A stretch of DNA of 64,000 nt from the NCBI RefSeq assembly GCF_021789175.1, contig NZ_CP084560.1:186001-250000 (forward strand). Reading direction: 5' to 3'. Shown here one piece after another: positions 3,187 through 12,567 of the stretch (positions within the stretch are counted from its first letter, which is position 1; the number at the start of each line of letters is the position of its first letter). This stretch comes from Arthrobacter sp. FW306-2-2C-D06B (GTDB lineage Bacteria > Actinomycetota > Actinomycetes > Actinomycetales > Micrococcaceae). The position numbers and the translations under genes were made by a program. The notes beneath the pieces are model-generated. The model was not told the origin of the DNA. It searched no databases and was given only the letters and a program-made list of their open reading frames with translations.

Positions 3187-3651
3187 CTATTGTTTGAGGG
3201 CCACAATGGCGTCGTGTTCGTCGCGGATTACCCGGCCGCGGGACATGGCCGTGACTCCCATGGCGCTGATAAGTTCGCCTCCGTGCCGGTGATCGGAGGC
3301 ACTGACCAGATACGAAAAGCTCAACATTGTTGATTCCCCGGCGCGCAACGTTCCGATGCGCAAGTCCTTGTCGAGGGGCCTCGACGTGTAATCAAGGCTC
3401 TCCATTCCTTCGTTGGTGAAGGAGCGAAGGATGAGGCACACATTGTGGAGTTGGCCCATGGAATCATTGATGATCCATGCGCTGAATATAATGGTCTCCC
3501 CCTGGGCCGCCACCGACTTGTCTGCCCCGTAAACGAGGACAATATTCCCGACATCTTTCTTTCGGGAGAGCGGTCCTGGGTGGAGTGCGGGAACTTCACG
3601 CCCGGCTGTGGCTTCTTGTGGTGGGCGGCGAAGACGGCGGAGCCAGTTCAT
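3187..3651 (-). CDS. hypothetical protein with a beta-sandwich-like domain
   Basis: The start is placed at the ATG giving MNWLRRLRR; an in-frame ATG at 3690 is the alternative and neither has a strong Shine-Dalgarno. The product is 154 residues with a basic N-terminus. After residue 35 comes a domain with alternating hydrophobic strands (IVLVYGADKSVAAQGETIIFSAWIIND..), reminiscent of CARDB/DUF11-like beta-sandwiches, although I cannot assign a family. It has no signal peptide or membrane segment. It is transcribed away from the sigma-pilin fusion gene, and the 91-base gap must hold both promoters. Confidence 0.6.
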   Translation of the reverse strand: MNWLRRLRRPPQEATAGREVPALHPGPLSRKKDVGNIVLVYGADKSVAAQGETIIFSAWIINDSMGQLHNVCLILRSFTNEGMESLDYTSRPLDKDLRIGTLRAGESTMLSFSYLVSASDHRHGGELISAMGVTAMSRGRVIRDEHDAIVALKQ

Positions 3652-3727
3652 GTCAGTTGAGTGTGGTCCGGGCCGGAATCGTGTTGCCATGGGTCAAACT
3701 CGCCGCCGCCGAATAACCGGGTCGGCG

Positions 3728-3745
3728 TAAGATTCAAGTCACATG
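3728..3745 (+). promoter_or_regulatory. candidate leaderless promoter of the sigma-pilin fusion
   Basis: TAAGAT at 3728-3733 resembles an actinobacterial -10 box and lies nine bases before the ATG at 3743. That places the expected transcription start within a few bases of the start codon. No Shine-Dalgarno is visible before this ATG or before the alternative ATG at 3773, which fits leaderless translation. No convincing -35 is seen. This is inference from spacing only. Confidence 0.3.
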
Positions 3746-6376
3746 CAATTTCGGCTGTCACACTGGGTTGCTATGGGGCAGGTTTCAGAGGACGGTTCGA
3801 CTGGCGGAGACGCATCGTTGGATGTCGGGCACAGCGACCCTCACATCATGGCCATGGTGCGTGACGGTGATGCTTCCGCCTTCGATGAGCTGTTCCGGCG
3901 ACACGTGGCAGCTGCCCAATTTGTTGCCCGCGCCCAGACGGACAATGTCAGCGACGCCGACGACGTTGTGTCCGAGGCGTTTGCTTCGATTTTCCAGGCC
4001 CTCACCGAGGGCAAGGGACCGGACCAGTTCTTTCGATCCTATCTTTTGACTGCAGTGCGGCGAATTGCCTACGACCGGAACCGGAAGGCCAGGCGTACTC
4101 AAGTCGTCGGCGACGTCGACGTCCTGGATACCGTTGCCATGGACGCGGACACCGTTCTAGACGCTTTTGAGTCCACCACCATGGCCAAGGCGTTCAGATC
4201 GCTTCCGGAACGCTGGCAGGCGGCCCTCTGGCACGTGGACATCGAAGGCCTGAAACCTGCCGCTGCCGCACCCTTCATCGGATTGAGCCCCAACGGCGTC
4301 TCGTCGCTCGTGATCCGGGCGCGAGAGGGGCTCCGGCAGGCCTACTTGCAAAACCACGTGACGGTGGTGAGCGACGACTCATGCGCTGAATTTTCGAGCC
4401 AGCTCGGAAAGTACGCCCGCGACGGCCTGAAGCGCGCGTCGCGGGAAAAGGTCAGGGCACACCTGGAAGAGTGTCCGAAGTGCACGGCTGTGCTGGTGGA
4501 ACTCAACGATGTCCAGGCAGGCATGAGGGCGCTTGTTTTCCCCTTGGTTGTCGGGGTGGTCTTCACACCGGCAGCGGCCGCCGGATTCCTCCCCGGAACC
4601 GCAATGCTGGAGACCCTTCTTTCTGGAGGGGTTCTCCCGGAGCCGTTCCTTCCCGAGCAGTTCGTTACGGGAGGGGCCGAACCGGCCGCCGCCGAACTGC
4701 GGTCGGTGGGGGGATTTTGGAAGATCGCAGTCGCCGCGCTGGTCCTTGGAGGCCTCGTGATTGCAGGCATCCTCATGTGGCTTGGACAGACTAGCCCGGC
4801 GCCCATCGCTGAAGCCGATGTTCCGAGCATCGCTCCGTCAGCCCCGCAGTCCGCGCCGGAACGTGCCCCGACGGCACCCCCGCCAAGCCCGGTGCCGACG
4901 CCGGACCCGCCCGCCATAGCGGTGCCGCGACCCCTTGCGCCCGTGCCCATCGCTCCCGAAGCGGCTCCTATGCCGCAGGCGACGGTAAGGGTGGCTGATC
5001 CCGGAACCGGCATCACGACACCCATTCCGCGGACGGGTTCCCTGACGATCCATAAGTATGAGAAGCCGGCGACGCCGACCGGCTTGCCTCACGACGGAAT
5101 GGCCCTGACTGCGGCCCAGTTGGAGGGAATGACACCTATGGCGGGGGTGACGTTCACGGTGCAGAAGGTCAACAACATTGACCTGACGACGAATGCGGGC
5201 TGGGCTGCGGCGGCCGCCTTGACTCCGGCGCAGGCCGCGGCGCAGGCGGCCACTCCGGGCTCCACGGCCACGACCGATGCGAGCGGAACAGCGACCCTGG
5301 GGAACCTTCCGCTGGGCCTGTATCTGGTGACGGAGACCGGTTACCCGGCGGGCGTGACTCCTTCGGCCCCGTTCCTGGTGACTCTTCCCATGACCGACCC
5401 CGCGGGCGGGAACGGCTGGATCTATGACGTGAACGTCTACCCCAAGAACGCCGTGACCACCGCGACGAAGACCGTGAATGATGCGTCGGTGGTCAAACTC
5501 GGCGACAACGTGCAGTGGACCATCACGTCAGATATCCCCAACGTCAATCCGATCGATGGGTACCGGATTGTCGACAAGCTCGATTCGAAGCTGAGCTACG
5601 CGAACTCGGCGGTGGCGCTCTCGAACAACGCGGCACTGGTGTTGGACACCGATTACACGGTCGTGTTCGATACGGCCTCGAACACGCTCATGATCGACTT
5701 CACCGCGAGCGGCCGGGCCATCTTGGCTGCGAACCCCACGGCCAAGGTCCTGGTGACGGTGAACTCCACCGTCAGTACGGTCGGTGAGATCGCGAACACG
5801 GCTCTTGTCTACCCGAACGCGGCCAGCTTCGCCATCACTCCGGGCCAGCCCGGCGGTCCCGTCCTCACTCCTCCCGTAAGCACCACCAAGTGGGGCGACA
5901 TCGTGCTGCACAAGAAGGATTCCCAGAGCTCCGCGGCCCTGTCCGGTGCCGTGTTCTCGGTCTACCCGAGCCGGGCCGATGCCCTGGCCGGCACCAAAGC
6001 GATCAGCGTCGGAGGGGTCAGTTCCTGGACCACCGATGCCAGCGGCAACCTGGTGATCTCCGGACTGCGCTACTCCAACTGGGCCAACGGAAAACCCGTG
6101 GGTCCGGGCCAGCCCGGCTACCAGAGCTACTGGCTTGTGGAGACCAAGGCCCCGGCCGGCTACGAGCTTCTCGCCCAGCCGGTCGAGACAGCGGTCACCA
6201 GCAACGATCCCTCCGCCGTGACGGTGACGATCGGGAACATCAAGCAGAACACCGGATTCCAGCTGCCACTCACGGGTGCGGGAACCTGGCCCCTGACCGC
6301 CGGCGGGATCCTCGTGCTGGCAGGAGCAGGCCTGTTCATGGCCACCGGCCGCCGGAAGCCGGCCGAAGCCAAATAG
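3743..6376 (+). CDS. ECF sigma factor fused to zinc finger, membrane helix and LPLTG pilin
   Basis: This single uninterrupted frame of 877 codons joins two functions. Residues about 32-115 form sigma-70 region 2 (ending YLLTAVRRIAYDRNRKARR) and about 150-205 form region 4. C214 and H240-x3-C244-x2-C247 make a zinc anti-sigma-like motif. Hydrophobic segments lie at 262-284 (with two prolines) and 325-348, followed by a Pro/Ala-rich linker (350-428). From about 430 the protein is a complete two-domain pilin. It carries an E-box-like YLVTETGYP, the pilin motif WIYDVNVYPK (W559 to K568), a second E box YWLVETKAP, LPLTG at 841-845, a final helix and an RRK tail. The pilin half is about 88% identical by eye to the separate major pilin at 10037. 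ECF proteins with a fused zinc finger and extracytoplasmic C-terminus are known, but I know of no described case with a sortase-type pilin. Start 3743 or 3773. Confidence 0.88.
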   Translation: MQFRLSHWVAMGQVSEDGSTGGDASLDVGHSDPHIMAMVRDGDASAFDELFRRHVAAAQFVARAQTDNVSDADDVVSEAFASIFQALTEGKGPDQFFRSYLLTAVRRIAYDRNRKARRTQVVGDVDVLDTVAMDADTVLDAFESTTMAKAFRSLPERWQAALWHVDIEGLKPAAAAPFIGLSPNGVSSLVIRAREGLRQAYLQNHVTVVSDDSCAEFSSQLGKYARDGLKRASREKVRAHLEECPKCTAVLVELNDVQAGMRALVFPLVVGVVFTPAAAAGFLPGTAMLETLLSGGVLPEPFLPEQFVTGGAEPAAAELRSVGGFWKIAVAALVLGGLVIAGILMWLGQTSPAPIAEADVPSIAPSAPQSAPERAPTAPPPSPVPTPDPPAIAVPRPLAPVPIAPEAAPMPQATVRVADPGTGITTPIPRTGSLTIHKYEKPATPTGLPHDGMALTAAQLEGMTPMAGVTFTVQKVNNIDLTTNAGWAAAAALTPAQAAAQAATPGSTATTDASGTATLGNLPLGLYLVTETGYPAGVTPSAPFLVTLPMTDPAGGNGWIYDVNVYPKNAVTTATKTVNDASVVKLGDNVQWTITSDIPNVNPIDGYRIVDKLDSKLSYANSAVALSNNAALVLDTDYTVVFDTASNTLMIDFTASGRAILAANPTAKVLVTVNSTVSTVGEIANTALVYPNAASFAITPGQPGGPVLTPPVSTTKWGDIVLHKKDSQSSAALSGAVFSVYPSRADALAGTKAISVGGVSSWTTDASGNLVISGLRYSNWANGKPVGPGQPGYQSYWLVETKAPAGYELLAQPVETAVTSNDPSAVTVTIGNIKQNTGFQLPLTGAGTWPLTAGGILVLAGAGLFMATGRRKPAEAK

Positions 6377-6420: not shown

Positions 6421-6442
6421 CGAAAATAGATTCCAATTTTCG
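6421..6442. promoter_or_regulatory. inverted repeat in the gap between fusion gene and tip-protein gene
   Basis: CGAAAAT at 6421-6427 pairs perfectly with ATTTTCG at 6436-6442 across an eight-base spacer. It lies 45 bases after the fusion gene and 20 bases before a stronger hairpin. It could be an operator or part of a termination structure; the sequence does not decide. Confidence 0.35.
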
Positions 6443-6461
6443 CGTCACGATCTACGAGTTG

Positions 6462-6482
6462 CACCCACTGTTCCAGTGGGTG
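6462..6482 (+). terminator. hairpin between sigma-pilin fusion and tip-protein gene
   Basis: CACCCACTG (6462-6470) pairs perfectly with CAGTGGGTG (6474-6482) around a three-base loop, and a short TTTC follows. It sits 86 bases after the fusion stop and 127 bases before the next start. It could terminate or attenuate transcription, separating the regulatory gene from the structural pilus genes. Confidence 0.5.
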
Positions 6483-6608
6483 GCCGTTTCTCCCCCACTT
6501 CATTCAAAAAATTGAACCCGTTTTCTGCGACACGAACCGCCGGAAGCGCGCACTTGATGGCTAGAGACCACCTGCGTGCCCGCTCCCGAAAGTGAAGCAA
6601 GAAAGCCT

Positions 6609-9600
6609 ATGAAGCAGTCCCTTCCAGCCAAGCTACTGGCAATTCTCCTCACCACAACGATTGTCGGCCTTGGCTTGGGCGGCACCCTGCTTTCACCCGC
6701 ATATGCGACGACGCCGGGAACCCCGGGAGTGCCTCAGGCGGGTACGCCGGTTTACACCGAAGACTTCAGCAGTCAGGATGCTTCGGCGGCTGCCATCAAC
6801 ATCCTGAACTACACCGGCGGTGCGGCAGCCGCGTTCTCGACGTACACGGCGGACCCGCAATGGACGCCGGCTGGAAACCAGTGCAACGGCTGGATCATGA
6901 GTTGGACCACGCCCAACCCTCCGGCCTCAGACGCTGGTTGCCAGCGCAACCTCGGCACGACGTGGCCCTCGCTACGGAGCATGGCCCAAGCGCTCGGCGT
7001 AGCGCAGGGGCAGAGCCCGGCGCAAGCACAAACGAATCAGGCTCTGACGGAGTACACGAATGCCTTGAGCGGTTCCATCACAGCCGGCACGGAATTCCGC
7101 ACAGTGAAGACCATTCCCGCGATCGCCGGGCACTACTACGCCGTGTCGGCCTATTTCGCGGCTGTGAACTGTCCTGCCCAGGGCGGCGCCAGTCAACCTC
7201 AGGAGACGTTCAGTCTTCTCGTGAACGGCACTCCGATCGTGCTGAGCTCCGGGCTGAACCCATGCACCAGTTCCACTGACTGGTCGACTCAGGTGACCAA
7301 ATTGCAGTCAGCGGCGTACATGATTCCGACCGGAACGACCGCGAACCTCGGGCTGTCTCTGTACAACGCCCAGACCAGTGGCTCGGGTAACGACGTGGCG
7401 TTCGACCTGCCCCAGATCGTCGACGTGACCCCGCAGTTGGACAAGTCGTTCAGTCCTGCGCTCATTGCCCCCGGCCAGGCCTCCACCGTGACGCTCACCG
7501 TGACCAATACCAGCGACCTGAAGGCGAAGAACGACTGGAGCATCACCGATACGCTGCCCGCCGGCGTCGTGATCGCCCCTAACCCCGCGATCGGCGGAAC
7601 GTGTGCCCAGGTGACCGGTGCCGCATTCGTCAAAACGGGAGCCGCCGGATCGAACACCTTCACGGCCACGGGCGGTGATCTTGCCGTAGGGCAGGCATCC
7701 TGCACCATCACGTTCAATGTGACGGCAGCTGGAGAGGGGACGTATGTCAACGGTCCCGCGAACATCGTGACCAACCTCAACCCGCCCGCGAACGCCACTC
7801 TTACCGTCCGGGCGCCGCGGATCACCTTGACCAAGGCCCTCGGAGCACCGCGTCAGGCGGCAACGGACCAGTTCGCCGTGCAGATCCGCACCGGCGGGGC
7901 GGCAGGCGCGGTGGTTAACAACACGACCAACTCGACCACGACAGGTACGGGATCGTCAGTAACTGCGGGAACCGGCACCACCGGCGCCTACGTGGCCACC
8001 GCTGGAACCGCGTATACCCTGACCGAAGCGGCCGCCGGTACGGCCAACCTTGCGAACTATGCCGGCACCATTACCTGTACGGACTCGTTCAGCCTGCAGA
8101 CCGGTTTGCCCGTCGGTGCAGCGTTCAGCGGTTCGCTGGCCATCACCCCGGTGGCCGGGGCGAACATTACCTGCACCCTGTCAAACACCGCCCAGCCGAT
8201 CATCAACGTAGCCAAGCAGCCCGGCACGGTCACCGGTCCGGATGCGAACGGCAACTTTGTCGCCAACTACACCGTCACCGTGGCCAACACCGGCTCGGTG
8301 GCCGGGACCTACGGCACCCTGGCCGACACTCCGGCGTTCGCCCCGAACCTGGCTGCAACGAGTGCTGCTTGGACGACTACCGGGAGCGGTGCTCCTGCTG
8401 GTGGGTCGTCGTCGACCGCCGGTCCTTACACCCTGGCTCCGGCGGGTTCTGCCATCGGTCCAGGGGTCACGCAGACCTTCAACCTCGCGGTGACGTTCCA
8501 CTACACCAACACCACTCCATTGCCGGCGTGCGCCGGCCCGGGGACAGGTCTGTTCAACTCGGTTGCGTTGCCGGCTGGCCAGGAGCAGGGCCCGACGACG
8601 GACAACTCCGCCTGTGACTCCCTGACGCCCAATCTGGTGGCCTCCAAAAACGTGGATCCGGTGGCCGGGACCATGGTCCAGCCCGGGCAGGTTCTGAGCT
8701 ACTCGCTGTCCTTTGACAACACCACCGGCACCGCCCCGGCTGCAGTCAGTTACACCGACTGGCTCGCGGACGTTCTGGATGCCTCGACTCTCGTAGCCAA
8801 CTCCATCACCACGACGGCCACGAGCGGGACTCCCTTGGTTGTCACGAACAACTCGGGGGCAGCGCCGAGAACCCTGGCCGTCACGGGCACCGTCGCTGCC
8901 GGCGCGAAGAGCGTCGTCACGTATCAGGTGAAGGTCAATAGCGCCGGCAATCTGGGTGATGCTTCGCTCGAGAACTACCTGACACCATCAACCACCATCA
9001 CTCCGCCAACGAGCTGCCCGGCCGGAAGTGCCACCTGCACGGTCAATCCCGTGGGCGTGTGGACCCTGGGCAAGACAGCATCCCCTGCTTCCGGAACCTC
9101 CATCAACCCGGGCGATCCAAGCGCAAACAGGGTGATCACGTATACGGTGACCGCCACCAACTCCACCGCCAATCCCATCACCGGTGTCATCCTCACCGAT
9201 GACCTGAGCCAGGTACTGAACAACGCCACGTTCACCGCCGGGTCCGCGAATCTGACCGTCAATGGCAGTACACCCCTCGCAGTCCCGGATCCGGGTACCG
9301 GCAGCACGTTGGCGACTCCTTCATTCACTCTGCCCGGCAACAGCACGGCAGTGTTGACCTACTCGGTGACGGTCAACGCGAATGCATGGCTCGTCACCGT
9401 GAAGAACGGGGCAACCGGCAACGGGATCGTCCCTCCGGCACGATGCGTCACCGGAGGCTCGGCGCCACTTGACCCTGCATGTTTCACCACGAATCCGACT
9501 ACCGGCCACCTGTTCGTGCAAAAGGCAGGACCCGGGACAACCCAGGGTTCCACCGTCCCGCTGACCGGCTCGACCTTTGAGATCCACAACGATGCTGCAG

Positions 9601-9992
9601 GGCAAATGGGTCCCACCGTCGTCGGAGTGAACAGCCCAGTATCGGGGTCACCCGGACTGGTCGAGGTCAGGAATTTGCTTCCTGGGACCTACTGGCTGCT
9701 CGAAACCAAAGCCCCGGTCGGCTACTCGCTTCTGGCCACCCCCGTGAAGTTCACCATTGCGCCGAACGGCAGCATCGCCTTGGACCCGGCCACCGCAGGA
9801 ACGTCAGTAACAGCAAACAACCGGACCATCACTGTTCTGGATATGGCGTCCGTCAAGCTTCCATTCGCCGGTGGGCCAGGCACTGCCGGCATCTTCGGCG
9901 GAACGGTTCTCGGGATCCTCGCGCTCATGACTTCCCTCGCCCTCATCGTCTTCAGGCGAGCGAACAAGACCCCACAAACCCAAACTCCTTAG
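6609..9992 (+). CDS. large surface adhesin / putative pilus tip protein, LPFAG signal
   Basis: The chosen start (MKQSLPAK) has AAGAAAG just upstream and gives a clear signal peptide ending near SPAYA; a start at 6576 would add 11 residues. The 1127-residue product has an N-terminal domain of about 36-268 with four or more cysteines (likely the adhesive head). About five DUF11-like beta-sandwich repeats follow (roughly 270-402, 403-530, 531-677, 680-815, 816-964), each opening with a strand such as LDKSFSPALIAPGQ or ASKNVDPVAG. A SpaA-like domain comes last, with E box YWLLETKAP. The cell-wall sorting region is LPFAG (1084-1088), a hydrophobic helix and an RRANK tail. Position before a major pilin and class C sortase supports a tip or minor pilin role. 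LPxAG rather than LPxTG is unusual. Confidence 0.8.
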   Translation: MKQSLPAKLLAILLTTTIVGLGLGGTLLSPAYATTPGTPGVPQAGTPVYTEDFSSQDASAAAINILNYTGGAAAAFSTYTADPQWTPAGNQCNGWIMSWTTPNPPASDAGCQRNLGTTWPSLRSMAQALGVAQGQSPAQAQTNQALTEYTNALSGSITAGTEFRTVKTIPAIAGHYYAVSAYFAAVNCPAQGGASQPQETFSLLVNGTPIVLSSGLNPCTSSTDWSTQVTKLQSAAYMIPTGTTANLGLSLYNAQTSGSGNDVAFDLPQIVDVTPQLDKSFSPALIAPGQASTVTLTVTNTSDLKAKNDWSITDTLPAGVVIAPNPAIGGTCAQVTGAAFVKTGAAGSNTFTATGGDLAVGQASCTITFNVTAAGEGTYVNGPANIVTNLNPPANATLTVRAPRITLTKALGAPRQAATDQFAVQIRTGGAAGAVVNNTTNSTTTGTGSSVTAGTGTTGAYVATAGTAYTLTEAAAGTANLANYAGTITCTDSFSLQTGLPVGAAFSGSLAITPVAGANITCTLSNTAQPIINVAKQPGTVTGPDANGNFVANYTVTVANTGSVAGTYGTLADTPAFAPNLAATSAAWTTTGSGAPAGGSSSTAGPYTLAPAGSAIGPGVTQTFNLAVTFHYTNTTPLPACAGPGTGLFNSVALPAGQEQGPTTDNSACDSLTPNLVASKNVDPVAGTMVQPGQVLSYSLSFDNTTGTAPAAVSYTDWLADVLDASTLVANSITTTATSGTPLVVTNNSGAAPRTLAVTGTVAAGAKSVVTYQVKVNSAGNLGDASLENYLTPSTTITPPTSCPAGSATCTVNPVGVWTLGKTASPASGTSINPGDPSANRVITYTVTATNSTANPITGVILTDDLSQVLNNATFTAGSANLTVNGSTPLAVPDPGTGSTLATPSFTLPGNSTAVLTYSVTVNANAWLVTVKNGATGNGIVPPARCVTGGSAPLDPACFTTNPTTGHLFVQKAGPGTTQGSTVPLTGSTFEIHNDAAGQMGPTVVGVNSPVSGSPGLVEVRNLLPGTYWLLETKAPVGYSLLATPVKFTIAPNGSIALDPATAGTSVTANNRTITVLDMASVKLPFAGGPGTAGIFGGTVLGILALMTSLALIVFRRANKTPQTQTP

Positions 9993-10036: not shown

Positions 10037-11506
10037 ATGAAATCATCGAAGGTGAGGCGCGGCATAAGAGCCTCTCTGGCCGCAATAGCCTCAGCTGGGA
10101 TGCTCGCCCTCGGAGCCGGAGGTGCACACGCGGCGAACACCGCGAACATCGATCCGTCCAAGACAGGTTCGTTGACAATCCATAAGTACGAGAAGCCGGC
10201 GACGCCGACGAACCTGCCCAACGATGGAACGGCACTGACCCCGGCCCAGACCGCGGCACTGACCCCGATGGCCGGGGTGACGTTCACGGTGCAGAAGGTC
10301 AACAACATTGACCTGACGACCAACGCCGGCTGGACTGCCGCGGCAGCCTTGACGCCGGCCCAGGCCGCGGCGCAGGCGGCCACCCCGGGCTCCACGACCA
10401 CGACGGACGCGAGCGGAACGGCGAGCCTGGGGAACCTTCCGCTGGGCCTGTATCTGGTGACGGAGACCGGCTATCCTGCCGGTATCACTCCCTCGGCCCC
10501 GTTCCTGGTGACCCTTCCAATGACGGACCCCGCGGGCGGGAACGGCTGGCTGTATGACGTGAACGTCTACCCCAAGAACGCCGTGACTACAGCGACGAAG
10601 ACCGTGAACGACGCCTCCGCGATCAAGCTCGGTGACGCGGTAACGTGGACCATCACGTCCGACATTCCCAACGTCAACCCGATCGATGGGTACCGGATTG
10701 TCGATAAGCTCGATTCGAAGCTGAGCTACACCAGCTCGACAGTTGCGCTTTCGAACAACGCGGCACTGGTGTTGAACACCGATTACACGGTCGCGTTCGA
10801 TACGGCCACGAATACCCTCACGGTCGACTTCACCGCCACCGGCCGGGCCGTGCTCGCGGCCAACCCCACGGCCAAGGTCCTGGTCACAGTGAACACCACC
10901 GTCAGTACGGTCGGTGAGATCGCGAACACGGCTCTTGTCTACCCGAACGCGGCCAGCTTCGCCATCACTCCGGGCCAGCCCAACGGTCCGGTCGTCACTC
11001 CTCCAGTTATTACCAAGTGGGGCGACATCGTGCTGCACAAGAAGGATTCCCAGAGCTCCGCGGCCCTGGCCGGCGCCGTGTTCTCGGTCTACCCGACCCA
11101 GGCCGACGCCCTGGCCGGCACGAACGCGATCAGCGTCGGAGGGGTCAGTTCCTGGACCACCGATGCCAGCGGCAACCTGGTGATCTCCGGACTGCGCTAC
11201 TCCAACTGGGCCAACGGGGCAACAGTGACCCCGGGCCAGCCCGGCTACCAGAGCTACTGGCTTGTGGAGACCAAGGCCCCGTCCGGCTACGAGCTGCTCG
11301 CCCAGCCGGTCGAGACCACGGTCACCAGCAACGACCCGTCAGTGGTCACAGTGACGATCAACAACGTCCCGCATAACGCCGGGTTCCAGCTGCCCCTCAC
11401 CGGTGGTGTGGGAACCTGGGCCCTGACCGCCGGAGGGATCCTCGTGCTGGCAGGCGCCGGTCTCTTCATGGTCACCGGCCGACGGAAGCGCAACGAGGCA
11501 AAGTAA
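10037..11506 (+). CDS. major pilin of a sortase-assembled pilus (SpaA type)
   Basis: The 489-residue precursor starts 44 bases after the tip gene with AAGAAAGGAACACG before the ATG. It has a signal peptide (cleavage near AHA-ANTAN). Two isopeptide-type domains follow, with E boxes YLVTETGYP and YWLVETKAP and the pilin motif WLYDVNVYPK (W171 to K180), whose lysine is the expected polymerisation nucleophile. LPLTG at 452-456, a hydrophobic helix and an RRKRNEAK tail complete the sorting signal. These features match backbone pilins of Corynebacterium and Actinomyces. Sortase C would join the Thr of one subunit to the Lys of the next. The mature region closely matches the C-terminal half of the sigma fusion at 3743. 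Confidence 0.9.
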   Translation: MKSSKVRRGIRASLAAIASAGMLALGAGGAHAANTANIDPSKTGSLTIHKYEKPATPTNLPNDGTALTPAQTAALTPMAGVTFTVQKVNNIDLTTNAGWTAAAALTPAQAAAQAATPGSTTTTDASGTASLGNLPLGLYLVTETGYPAGITPSAPFLVTLPMTDPAGGNGWLYDVNVYPKNAVTTATKTVNDASAIKLGDAVTWTITSDIPNVNPIDGYRIVDKLDSKLSYTSSTVALSNNAALVLNTDYTVAFDTATNTLTVDFTATGRAVLAANPTAKVLVTVNTTVSTVGEIANTALVYPNAASFAITPGQPNGPVVTPPVITKWGDIVLHKKDSQSSAALAGAVFSVYPTQADALAGTNAISVGGVSSWTTDASGNLVISGLRYSNWANGATVTPGQPGYQSYWLVETKAPSGYELLAQPVETTVTSNDPSVVTVTINNVPHNAGFQLPLTGGVGTWALTAGGILVLAGAGLFMVTGRRKRNEAK

Positions 11507-11539: not shown

Positions 11540-11578
11540 GGTATGGGTCATCCACCAGTATGGTGGATGCCCCATACC
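11540..11578 (+). terminator. long hairpin between major pilin and sortase genes
   Basis: GGTATGGG-T-CATCCACC (11540-11556) pairs with GGTGGATG-C-CCCATACC (11562-11578): 16 pairs, one mismatch and a five-base loop. There is no T-run. It sits 34 bases after the pilin stop and 30 bases before the sortase ATG. It may act as an attenuator or 3' stabiliser, giving more pilin than sortase message. Confidence 0.55.
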
Positions 11579-11607
11579 GCTCCCGTCCATCAAAGCAAGA
11601 GGCCCCA

Positions 11608-12567
11608 ATGACCCAAACCCTCAAAGAATTCATGGAGGGTTCCGAACCTGGCCCGGAAGGCCCTCCTCGGCGCCATAGGACGCGGAGACCGGCGGCGGGA
11701 AGCAAGCGCATCCGATCAGGTCTTGCTGACCGCAGGCTTTTCACGATGATGGTCATCGCCGCAATCGGCCTGGGCCTGGTCCTTTACCCCCAGGCAGCTG
11801 ACTGGTTCAGCTCGATATCCCACAGCAGCCAACTTTCCGGCTATGCGCAGGAAGTCGAACAGCTTGAACCCTCGGCCCGGACGAAAGTGTTGGACCGGGC
11901 ACGCGAATACAACTCCCGGATCCCCGGCGGACAACTGCGGGACCCCTACTCCGCCCAGGCCCCGATGCCGGCATTGGAAGGGCAGCTGCGGGATTATCAG
12001 AGCCAGTTGAACGTAGCCAACGACGACGTGGTCGGAAGATTCCGCTACCCGTCCCTGAACATTGATCTGCCGATCTTCCACGGAACCAGCGATGACGTTC
12101 TAGCCAAAGGCGTGGGCCACCTCTACGGCTCCTCCCTTCCCGTAGGCGGCCCGGGCACGCACAGCGTCCTGACATCGCACTCGGGGATTCCGAATGCGGA
12201 ACTCTTCAATCCCCTCCACAGCGCGAAAACGGGTGACATCTTCTCCACCGAAGTCATGGACCACACGTTCCTCTACAAGGTAAACAGGATCGAAGTGGTC
12301 AAACCGGATGACATTTCCTCACTGAAAATCACCGCGGGGGAGGACTCCATCACTTTGGTAACGTGTACCCCCATCGGAGTGAACTCGCACCGGCTCCTAG
12401 TTCACGCATCCCGGATCGCAGACATCCCCAAAGACGCACCGGAACAGAAAACGCTGGCAGGGCGCCAAGCCAACATTGGATTCCCGTACTGGATCGTCTA
12501 CTTCGTGGGAGGCTTGCTGGCCTTCTACCTGGCTTTTCTTGCCTGGAACCGTCGACGAGTCCGATGA
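11608..12567 (+). CDS. srtC: class C (pilus-polymerising) sortase
   Basis: The ATG with AAGAGG five bases upstream is chosen over an earlier in-frame ATG at 11560 that would lie inside the hairpin. The 319-residue protein has an N-terminal membrane segment (about 43-62). A DPY lid motif is at 112-114, as in class C sortases where DPF/DPW covers the active site. The catalytic residues are H191 (LTSHSG), C253 (TLVTCTP) and R262 (NSHRLLV). A second membrane helix ends in RRRVR at the C-terminus, also typical of the class. It should polymerise the LPLTG pilins encoded just upstream. No housekeeping sortase for wall attachment is present in the window. Confidence 0.92.
   Translation: MTQTLKEFMEGSEPGPEGPPRRHRTRRPAAGSKRIRSGLADRRLFTMMVIAAIGLGLVLYPQAADWFSSISHSSQLSGYAQEVEQLEPSARTKVLDRAREYNSRIPGGQLRDPYSAQAPMPALEGQLRDYQSQLNVANDDVVGRFRYPSLNIDLPIFHGTSDDVLAKGVGHLYGSSLPVGGPGTHSVLTSHSGIPNAELFNPLHSAKTGDIFSTEVMDHTFLYKVNRIEVVKPDDISSLKITAGEDSITLVTCTPIGVNSHRLLVHASRIADIPKDAPEQKTLAGRQANIGFPYWIVYFVGGLLAFYLAFLAWNRRRVR

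What the first reader, a model, noticed from the sequence alone, without database searches (positions are those of the whole stretch)
3743..6376. Sigma factor, zinc anti-sigma domain and complete sortase pilin in one protein
Seen: one open frame encodes ECF sigma regions 2 and 4, an Hx3Cx2C zinc motif, a membrane helix and a full pilin with LPLTG signal. Known: membrane-bound ECF factors with fused zinc fingers and extracytoplasmic domains exist, and sortase pilins are normally separate secreted proteins. Inference: the protein is a one-piece pilus sensor. Its outer half could be built into, or compete with, the pilus made by the next genes. Proteolysis or tension on the membrane helix would then free the sigma domain to adjust pilus transcription. 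I know of no described example.
Basis: partly seen in the sequence, partly recalled or inferred. Interest (0 to 1): 0.96.

Follow-up and report, generated by a model that had tools for sequence, protein, structure and literature searches.

The report
Sigma factor fused to a pilin
In some Arthrobacter bacteria, one protein joins a gene-switching sigma factor to a complete surface-pilus subunit; the pilin half is predicted to sit outside the cell as the base of the pilus made by the neighbouring genes, so the pilus would likely report its own state directly to transcription.

Summary
One frame (3773-6376) encodes sigma regions 2 and 4, a zinc anti-sigma domain, one membrane helix, a proline-rich linker and a whole mature SpaH/FimA-type pilin with LPLTG. 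It is no assembly artefact: 9 of 206 genus genomes carry it, three on single contigs, each 5' of tip, major pilin and class C sortase.

Elsewhere in the genus the same sigma gene ends in a ~115-residue beta-sandwich and precedes a wall adhesin; here that domain was replaced, apparently once, by a copy of the pilus's own pilin. The pilin half is under purifying selection like the free pilin, and 18 of 18 complete fused proteins keep the linking lysine. But 17 of 18 lack the Gly-x-Gly after LPxTG found in all free pilins and tips examined, which in Lactobacillus marks class C sortase substrates and is missing from basal pilins. The operon has no separate basal pilin. A conserved element, with one exact match in the genome, precedes the pilus genes.

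Best reading: a membrane-tethered basal pilin that is also the operon's sigma factor, likely released by proteolysis. Assembly, release and promoter use are untested. A new variant of membrane-anchored ECF sigma factors.

The parts
   Evidence: open frame; P0001 867 aa; 9 of 206 genus genomes carry the fusion
3890..4099 (+). sigma region 2
   Evidence: PF04542 residues 50-119 of the 877-aa frame, E 1.3e-8
4187..4327 (+). sigma region 4
   Evidence: PF08281 residues 149-195, weak; TIGR02937 spans 46-200 at 6.9e-14
4382..4483 (+). zinc anti-sigma domain, C-x(n)-H-x3-C-x2-C
   Evidence: PF13490 7e-7; motif in 18 of 18 complete fused proteins
4724..4780 (+). single membrane helix, basic residues on the sigma side
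   Evidence: hydropathy 2.54, estimated insertion energy favourable; earlier hydrophobic stretch unfavourable
4784..5038 (+). proline-rich linker, 85 residues, 29% proline
5039..6373 (+). mature SpaH/EbpB-type pilin, in the place of the outer domain of the unfused relatives
   Evidence: NF033902 3.8e-110; 88% DNA identity to free pilin; PDB relatives FimP 3uxf, SpaD 4hss, SpaA 3hr6 (gene names recalled)
5417..5446 (+). pilin motif WIYDVNVYPK; linking lysine codon 5444-5446
   Evidence: located; motif present in 18 of 18 complete distinct fused proteins
6128..6163 (+). E-box YWLVETKAPAGY
   Evidence: 17 of 18; located
6263..6277 (+). LPLTG sorting signal, followed by AGT, not GxG
6437..6450 (+). 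conserved element TTTTCGCGTCACGA, putative promoter or operator of the pilus genes
   Evidence: only exact match in the 4.56-Mb genome; variants kept 3' of the sigma gene in relatives
6464..6480 (.). inverted repeat CCCACTG-N3-CAGTGGG between element and tip gene
   Evidence: conserved in the 7 fused loci aligned; located
6521..6536 (+). second, similar element TTTTCTGCGACACGAA
   Evidence: alignment; located
6576..9992 (+). tip-type pilin, LPFAGGPG; N-terminal 600 residues resemble the adhesins next to unfused sigma genes
10037..11506 (+). free major pilin with signal peptide, LPLTGGVG
11560..12567 (+). class C sortase
   Evidence: NF033745 3.5e-72, above cut-off

Best explanation
The gene encodes a membrane-anchored ECF-type sigma factor whose outer half is a complete sortase pilin, and it is predicted to act as the basal subunit of the pilus made by the next three genes, so that the state of the pilus would likely control release of the sigma domain and transcription of those genes. 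Shown from sequence: the domain order, its conservation, the older outer domain at the same place in relatives, the intact linking lysine, the altered sorting signal, the lack of a separate basal pilin gene in the operon, and the conserved element in front of the pilus genes. Inferred steps: (0) one replacement of the older outer domain by the operon's own pilin; (1) sortase C joins the growing pilus to the linking lysine of the fused protein; (2) its LPxTG lacks the Gly-x-Gly, so polymerisation would stop there and the genome's other sortase (class E) would attach it to the wall; (3) the long linker and the helix then tie the pilus base to the zinc domain-sigma unit; (4) completion of the base, or pull on it, would start cleavage in the linker and then in the membrane; (5) freed sigma would transcribe tip, pilin and sortase from the element at 6437.
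For: Fusion in 9 of 206 genus genomes, each with tip, pilin and srtC downstream. Fused pilins form one clade nested in free pilins, support 93/91, not starred. dN/dS over 21 pairs of 7 genomes: fused pilin half 0.167, free mature pilin 0.161, sigma 0.108. Of 18 complete distinct fused proteins: linking lysine 18, E-box 17, zinc ligands 18, LPxTG 16, Gly-x-Gly 1 (1 of 19, which adds G107). Gly-x-Gly is present in 13 of 13 close and 8 of 8 distant free pilins and in all 14 distinct tip genes (13 strict, one LPESGGIG). In L. rhamnosus GG that tripeptide distinguishes backbone and tip pilins from basal pilins, and its substitution perturbs polymerisation (review PMC5536039, passages). The genome has two sortase matches, class C here and one class E, and site-2 protease (M50) matches. 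Element: one exact match in the genome; variants 3' of the sigma gene in 9 of 9 fused loci and 14 of 15 sigma-adhesin loci. Proteolytic activation is the published expectation for ECF48, ECF52 and ECF53 (PMC8999054, passages).
Against: No experiment shows the fused protein in a pilus, its cleavage, or the sigma's target. The Gly-x-Gly rule comes from Lactobacillus, and P0010 keeps the tripeptide. The genome has no class A sortase match, and class E sortases prefer LAxTG (recalled); the wall adhesins next to unfused sigma genes read LAxTG in 11 of 12 visible cases, whereas fused proteins read LPxTG in 16 of 18 (others LPFAG, LATTG), so step 2 is weak. The sorting-signal region of the fused proteins is less constrained than the rest of the pilin (dN/dS 0.417). 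Basal pilins usually have a proline-rich C-terminal tail (PMC5536039, passages); here the proline-rich stretch is N-terminal. The element does not look like a textbook ECF promoter, and no -35/-10 pair was established. The full-length structure model was poor (pLDDT 51). A membrane-fixed N-terminus in a pilus subunit has no precedent known to me.
Confidence: 0.42

Rival explanations
1. Same sigma factor for the pilus operon, but the pilin half acts as a free monomer sensor: it stands at the sortase C site like an ordinary pilin and reports pilin supply or sortase activity, a feedback gauge, without ending up at the pilus base.
For: The pilin half stays 79-92% identical in protein to the genome's own free pilin although synonymous codons differ at 0.14-0.38 (9 genomes). 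In 4 of 9 genomes the longest identical synonymous run exceeds shuffled expectation at p about 0.002-0.03, uncorrected, which hints at gene conversion. LPxTG rather than LAxTG in 16 of 18 fits sortase C.
Against: The lack of Gly-x-Gly in 17 of 18 is a difference from all sortase C substrates examined here, which a faithful monomer gauge would not need.
Confidence: 0.23
2. The pilin half is a passive anchor or general surface sensor domain: any beta-sandwich would do, and sortase attachment merely fixes the sensor to the wall so that the sigma reports envelope or adhesion stress rather than pilus state.
For: The family carries many unrelated outer domains: NPCBM, ricin lectin, Big_6, DUF11, and a pilin/adhesin-like sandwich in Arthrobacter.
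Against: The linking lysine motif is kept in 18 of 18 and dN/dS of the domain that holds it is 0.128, against 0.111 in free pilins; a mere anchor would not need the lysine.
Confidence: 0.19
3. Structural role only: the sigma part has become a membrane anchor for a basal pilin and no longer works in transcription.
For: Region 4 scores weakly in Pfam.
Against: Sigma part dN/dS 0.108, the lowest of the fused protein's parts; the conserved element remains next to the pilus genes; the ECF model is matched over its whole length.
Confidence: 0.08
4. Two products: an internal start gives a separately secreted pilin besides the sigma protein.
For: A Met-Arg followed by a hydrophobic stretch lies at codon 261 of the 877 frame (sequence; not tested).
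Against: A like stretch is also present in the unfused relatives printed, which have no pilin, so it does not serve this purpose there.
Confidence: 0.05

Closest known systems
ECF52 sigma factor SCO4117 (Streptomyces coelicolor) and the ECF48/52/53 groups
   Same: ECF sigma domain, zinc finger, membrane helix, proline-rich linker and outer domain in one chain; release by proteolysis proposed (PMC5826349 and PMC8999054, passages read). Streptomyces relatives L012 and L013, 42-43% identical over query residues 31-271, carry an NPCBM outer domain, which is, as I recall, the smart00776 type named for SCO4117.
   Different: Here the outer domain is a sortase pilin with linking lysine and LPxTG, and the gene sits in front of that pilus's operon. 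In 27 other family members checked, no convincing sortase signal was found at the C-terminus.
Arthrobacter sigma genes at the same site with a beta-sandwich outer domain
   Same: Same sigma, zinc and helix parts (50-72% identity in the six loci), same upstream neighbour in 14 of 15 sigma-adhesin loci, and in 14 of 15 a variant of the same intergenic element.
   Different: Outer domain of about 115 residues with two invariant cysteines, no sorting signal in the tails printed; next gene is a wall adhesin (15 of 15 fetched loci) or no surface gene (2 genomes), not a pilus operon.
SpaH/EbpB/FimA-type major pilins (FimP 3uxf, SpaD 4hss, SpaA 3hr6)
   Same: Whole mature pilin, pilin motif, E-box, LPxTG.
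   Different: No signal peptide; fused to a sigma factor through a membrane helix; lacks Gly-x-Gly after LPxTG in 17 of 18.
Basal pilins (such as SpaB of L. rhamnosus GG)
   Same: Linking lysine plus a sorting signal without Gly-x-Gly, as told in PMC5536039 (passages).
   Different: Larger, derived from the backbone pilin, membrane-fixed N-terminus, proline-rich stretch at the N- rather than the C-terminal side.
RsgI anti-sigma factors of Clostridium thermocellum
   Same: Outer sensing domain, trans-wall stretch and membrane helix controlling a sigma factor by stepwise proteolysis (PMC12203970, passages).
   Different: Separate sigma factor; carbohydrate-sensing domains; not sortase substrates as far as I know (recalled).

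Membership tests
Membrane-anchored ECF sigma factors of the ECF48/52/53 kind | ECF sigma regions 2 and 4 in the N-terminal part | tested here: met
   TIGR02937 residues 46-200, 6.9e-14; PF04542 1.3e-8; PF08281 weak
Membrane-anchored ECF sigma factors of the ECF48/52/53 kind | fused zinc anti-sigma finger | tested here: met
   PF13490 7e-7; ligands in 18 of 18
Membrane-anchored ECF sigma factors of the ECF48/52/53 kind | one or two membrane helices then an extracytoplasmic region | tested here: met
   one favourable helix between zinc finger and pilin; outer side inferred from the pilin's sorting signal and, in unfused relatives, two invariant cysteines
Membrane-anchored ECF sigma factors of the ECF48/52/53 kind | assignment to a numbered ECF group by its own model | not testable with these tools
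   no ECF group models among the libraries used; the paper looked up under doi 10.1093/nar/gkaa1229 is not held
Membrane-anchored ECF sigma factors of the ECF48/52/53 kind | activation by proteolysis | not testable with these tools
   only the presence of M50 protease matches in the genome was seen
Sortase-assembled pilin | pilin motif with linking lysine | tested here: met
   18 of 18 complete distinct fused proteins
Sortase-assembled pilin | LPxTG-type sorting signal, hydrophobic stretch, basic tail | tested here: met
   LPLTG here; LPxTG in 16 of 18, LPFAG and LATTG in the others
Sortase-assembled pilin | N-terminal signal peptide | tested here: not met
   replaced by the sigma protein's linker and helix; so it is not filed as an ordinary pilin
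Backbone pilin as class C sortase substrate | Gly-x-Gly after LPxTG | tested here: not met
   LPLTG-AGT in the window; 1 of 18 fused proteins has it
Basal pilin | linking lysine with a sorting signal lacking Gly-x-Gly | tested here: met
   rule from PMC5536039 passages
Basal pilin | proline-rich C-terminal tail | tested here: not met
   proline-rich stretch is N-terminal, 85 residues; so it is called basal-like, not a member
Basal pilin | location at the pilus base | not testable with these tools
   needs microscopy or mass spectrometry

The most novel reading that the evidence does not exclude
A sigma factor that is itself a covalent subunit of an extracellular organelle: the pilus is bonded, through its basal subunit, to the protein that transcribes its genes, so that completion or pulling of a single pilus is read out directly as sigma release. 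The sensor arose by swapping the sigma factor's outer domain for a copy of the structure it controls.
Probability: 0.35. Interest if true: 0.93.

Novelty: new variant of a known kind. Interest (0 to 1): 0.82.

Why it matters
How Gram-positive cells know whether their sortase pili are assembled, or under load, is open as far as I know (recalled). This protein puts a pilus subunit and the transcription switch in one chain and so makes the question testable with single-residue changes. It also suggests how a signalling system can be rewired: the outer domain of a membrane sigma factor replaced by a copy of the very product it appears to regulate, while the regulatory DNA between the genes was kept. 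In practice such fusions are named either plain 'major pilin' or plain 'sigma factor' by the sources (names), so one half is invisible in current annotation.

Tried and rejected
Assembly chimera between two pilin copies: rejected. The copies differ along their whole length and the fusion recurs in independent, including single-contig, genomes.

Wholesale concerted evolution of the two pilins: rejected. Fused and free pilins separate by one branch (86/87, 93/91; neither starred). Only patchy similarity runs remain, in 4 of 9 genomes (W, L005, L006, L091; uncorrected p).

Full-length structure prediction of the fused protein: too poor to use.

Other sortase-anchored sigma factors: of 27 proteins of the wider family (20 picked mainly for length from the 137 matching genomes of 396, and 7 fetched before) none has a convincing sorting signal; L173 shows a chance LPGAG, and a few frame ends (L173, L176, L178) look doubtful. 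The 104 unfused proteins P0017-P0120 were not tested for signals one by one; tails of 22 of them were looked at by eye.

Literature (open-licence PMC library only): searches found 0 papers; one search found 1, a Rhodococcus genome paper, not opened; one search found 48, of which 15 were listed, titles and starts of abstracts seen, none on such a fusion; one search found 22, 20 listed; one search was too loose (9,608 hits; its top two are ECF-related reviews). Searches served the comparison systems. The paper with doi 10.1093/nar/gkaa1229 (by recall the ECF reclassification) and Douillard 2014 are not held; the latter is cited through a review of which I read passages.

Rows left out or corrected: L006_fus and P0005 missed the start pattern and P0001, P0006, P0008 were left out as duplicate or truncated. 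In one search the L006 row of the identity tables is wrong (start missed; the dN/dS lines are not affected) and is replaced. In one search the 20 fused rows hold 16 distinct sequences, and P0004, P0005, P0012 were not in the tree. In one search, L128 and L132 are cut copies of the window's fused gene, L128 and L061 give cut pieces of the window's tip among the adhesins, most tips were seen twice through overlapping loci (26 frames, 14 genes), two adhesins (L098, L102) run off their stretch, and L184 was misread by the pattern (its signal is LPFTGGVG); the counts quoted take this into account.

Full report
WHAT IS THERE. The window's frame 3743-6376 is open over 877 codons; the conserved start is probably the ATG at 3773, giving 867 aa. 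Pfam and NCBIfam give sigma region 2, a weak region 4 (whole ECF model 6.9e-14), a zf-HC2 zinc finger and a SpaH/EbpB major pilin at 3.8e-110. Hydropathy gives one well-inserting helix between zinc finger and pilin, with basic residues on the sigma side. An 85-residue linker with 29% proline joins helix and pilin. By sequence the pilin half matches fimbrial subunits in the PDB (3uxf, 4hss, 3hr6 and others), with the pilin motif and E-box aligned in the two alignments shown.

SURROUNDINGS. The next genes on the same strand are a tip-type pilin ending LPFAGGPG (6576-9992), a free major pilin (10037-11506) and a class C sortase (11560-12567). The free pilin and the fused half share 1173 of 1331 bases, and the match begins at about residue 42 of the free pilin, just after its signal peptide and first residues. 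The genome search found only these two copies. The operon holds no separate basal pilin gene.

NOT AN ARTEFACT. The genome is one contig of 4.56 Mb. Of 206 genomes of the genus, 40 have the sigma part at E <= 1e-110, and 9 of these have an open frame of 876-943 aa, that is, the fusion: G000, G199, G064, G107, G200, G191, G059, G065, G184; G000, G107 and G184 are single contigs. The protein search found 509 proteins; among the 120 listed, 16 have both parts (P0001-P0016; P0006 and P0008 are truncated, P0001 is the window's). All 9 genomes have a free pilin on the same strand about 6 kb after the sigma gene's start, and tip and srtC in the same order. Eight of the 9 lie next to the same acyltransferase gene as the window; in G184 that gene was not in the stretch fetched, and the tip gene's N-terminal part differs.

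WHERE IT CAME FROM. In 15 genomes with an unfused sigma gene that I fetched (L043-L046, L098-L108; the genus scan has 31 unfused), the gene follows the same acyltransferase in 14 and stands before a large adhesin in 15; no sortase C gene appeared in those stretches. The adhesin's N-terminal part is 39-63% identical to the first ~600 residues of the window's tip (in L107 the adhesin frame is split in two). In two genomes (G189 = L011/L097, and G021 = L047), the sigma gene lies between the same acyltransferase and SDR genes with neither adhesin nor pilus genes. The unfused proteins end in a ~115-residue domain (profile; alignment A2 of 32 sequences with two invariant cysteines; model pLDDT 91.5) with an Ig-like adhesin/pilin fold. 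In the fused proteins the same linker (VVDSGT...) runs straight into the mature pilin. A rooted tree puts 20 fused rows (16 distinct) in one clade within the free pilins, support 93/91, not starred. So the outer domain was replaced, most likely once, by the pilus's own pilin (inference). The tip looks like a chimera too: adhesin-like N-terminal part and pilus-tip C-terminal part. Pilus operons of the same type without the fusion in G191, G021 and G189 also have an unfused sigma paralogue nearby (18 bp after srtC in G191; convergent in the other two), and G161 has a short sigma frame after srtC. The link between this sigma family and this pilus is therefore probably older than the fusion, or was made repeatedly.

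SELECTION. Over 21 pairs of 7 genomes, dN/dS is 0.108 for sigma, 0.174 for the zinc domain, 0.469 for the linker, 0.167 for the fused pilin, 0.417 for its sorting-signal region alone, and 0.161 for the free mature pilin. Between fused and free pilin of one genome, synonymous codons differ at 0.14-0.38 while protein identity is 79-92% (9 genomes). Both halves are maintained and the fusion is not recent.

THE DISCRIMINATING DETAIL. Of 18 complete distinct fused proteins, 18 keep the pilin motif lysine, 17 the E-box, 18 the zinc ligands, 16 LPxTG (the others LPFAG and LATTG), and 1 the Gly-x-Gly after the motif (1 of 19, which adds G107). Free pilins have it in 13 of 13 close and 8 of 8 distant proteins fetched, tips in 14 of 14 genes (one with the odd signal LPESGGIG), adhesins in 0 of 12 with a visible signal. 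A review (PMC5536039, passages) reports that in L. rhamnosus GG this tripeptide is present in backbone and tip pilins, missing in basal pilins, and that its substitution disturbs polymerisation. The one exception, P0010, has a C-terminus close to a free pilin's, which may be conversion (inference). The fused protein thus looks able to accept a pilus on its lysine but unlike a class C sortase substrate at its own end: the make-up expected of a basal subunit. The genome has one other sortase match, class E, and M50 protease matches. Against this, class E sortases prefer LAxTG (recalled); the adhesins read LAxTG in 11 of 12, the fused proteins mostly LPxTG, so which sortase would anchor the fused protein is uncertain.

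REGULATORY DNA. Between the fused gene and tip lies TTTTCGCGTCACGA (6437-6450). It has one exact match in the genome, three with one mismatch, and none for the reversed control. It or close variants (such as TTTTCTCCGTCACGA) follow the sigma gene, within about 300 nt, in 9 of 9 fused loci and 14 of 15 sigma-adhesin loci (L108 lacks it); the two sites without surface gene lack the full element (L011 has a bare CGTCACGA further on). It goes with the surface gene rather than with the sigma gene alone, which fits a target of this sigma. No -35/-10 pair was established.

HOW IT LIKELY WORKS. Committed model: sortase C passes the growing pilus to the lysine of the fused protein; the sorting signal then ends polymerisation and the class E sortase anchors it; the linker and helix tie this base to the zinc domain and sigma; completion of or pull on the base starts stepwise proteolysis, as expected for ECF48/52/53 (PMC8999054, passages) and described for RsgI (PMC12203970, passages); sigma then transcribes tip, pilin and srtC. 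Each of these steps is inferred. Rivals are a monomer gauge of pilin supply or sortase activity, a passive wall anchor, a dead sigma, and two products.

KNOWN OR NEW. One-piece sigma, zinc finger, helix and outer domain is known from ECF52 SCO4117 (PMC5826349, passages), and I found outer domains such as NPCBM, ricin lectin, Big_6 and DUF11 in relatives. A sortase pilin as the outer domain was not found in 27 other family members nor in the searched literature (open-licence library, listings only). Hence: new variant of a known kind, with a possibly new principle.

Noticed in passing
L043-L046, L098-L108: Pairs of a membrane sigma gene and a wall adhesin (about 900 to over 2700 aa; LAxTG in 11 of 12 visible signals) at one conserved site in 15 genomes, with the TTTTCGCGTCACGA element or a variant between them in 14; a candidate sigma-adhesin regulatory module.
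   Followed up: partly
window 6576-9992: The tip protein looks chimeric: first ~600 residues like the sigma-linked adhesins, last ~460 like tips of pilus operons without the fusion.
   Followed up: partly
L182 and L187 (G161): The pilus operon lies inverted beside the acyltransferase gene, with only a 231-aa sigma frame after srtC and one copy of the element on the other strand.
   Followed up: no
L188 7415-10138 (G191): An unfused sigma paralogue begins 18 bp after srtC of a second pilus operon in a genome that also has the fusion.
   Followed up: partly
L162-L171: Related membrane sigma proteins of about 1000-1640 aa in other families of the order, with long outer regions and no sorting signal seen.
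   Followed up: partly
window 6464-6480: Inverted repeat conserved in the fused loci between the element and the tip gene; terminator-like or operator, undecided.
   Followed up: no
L107 4784-7701: Adhesin gene split into two overlapping frames, possibly a frameshift.
   Followed up: no
window 3187-3690, - strand: 167-aa frame just upstream of the fused gene on the other strand; not identified.
   Followed up: no
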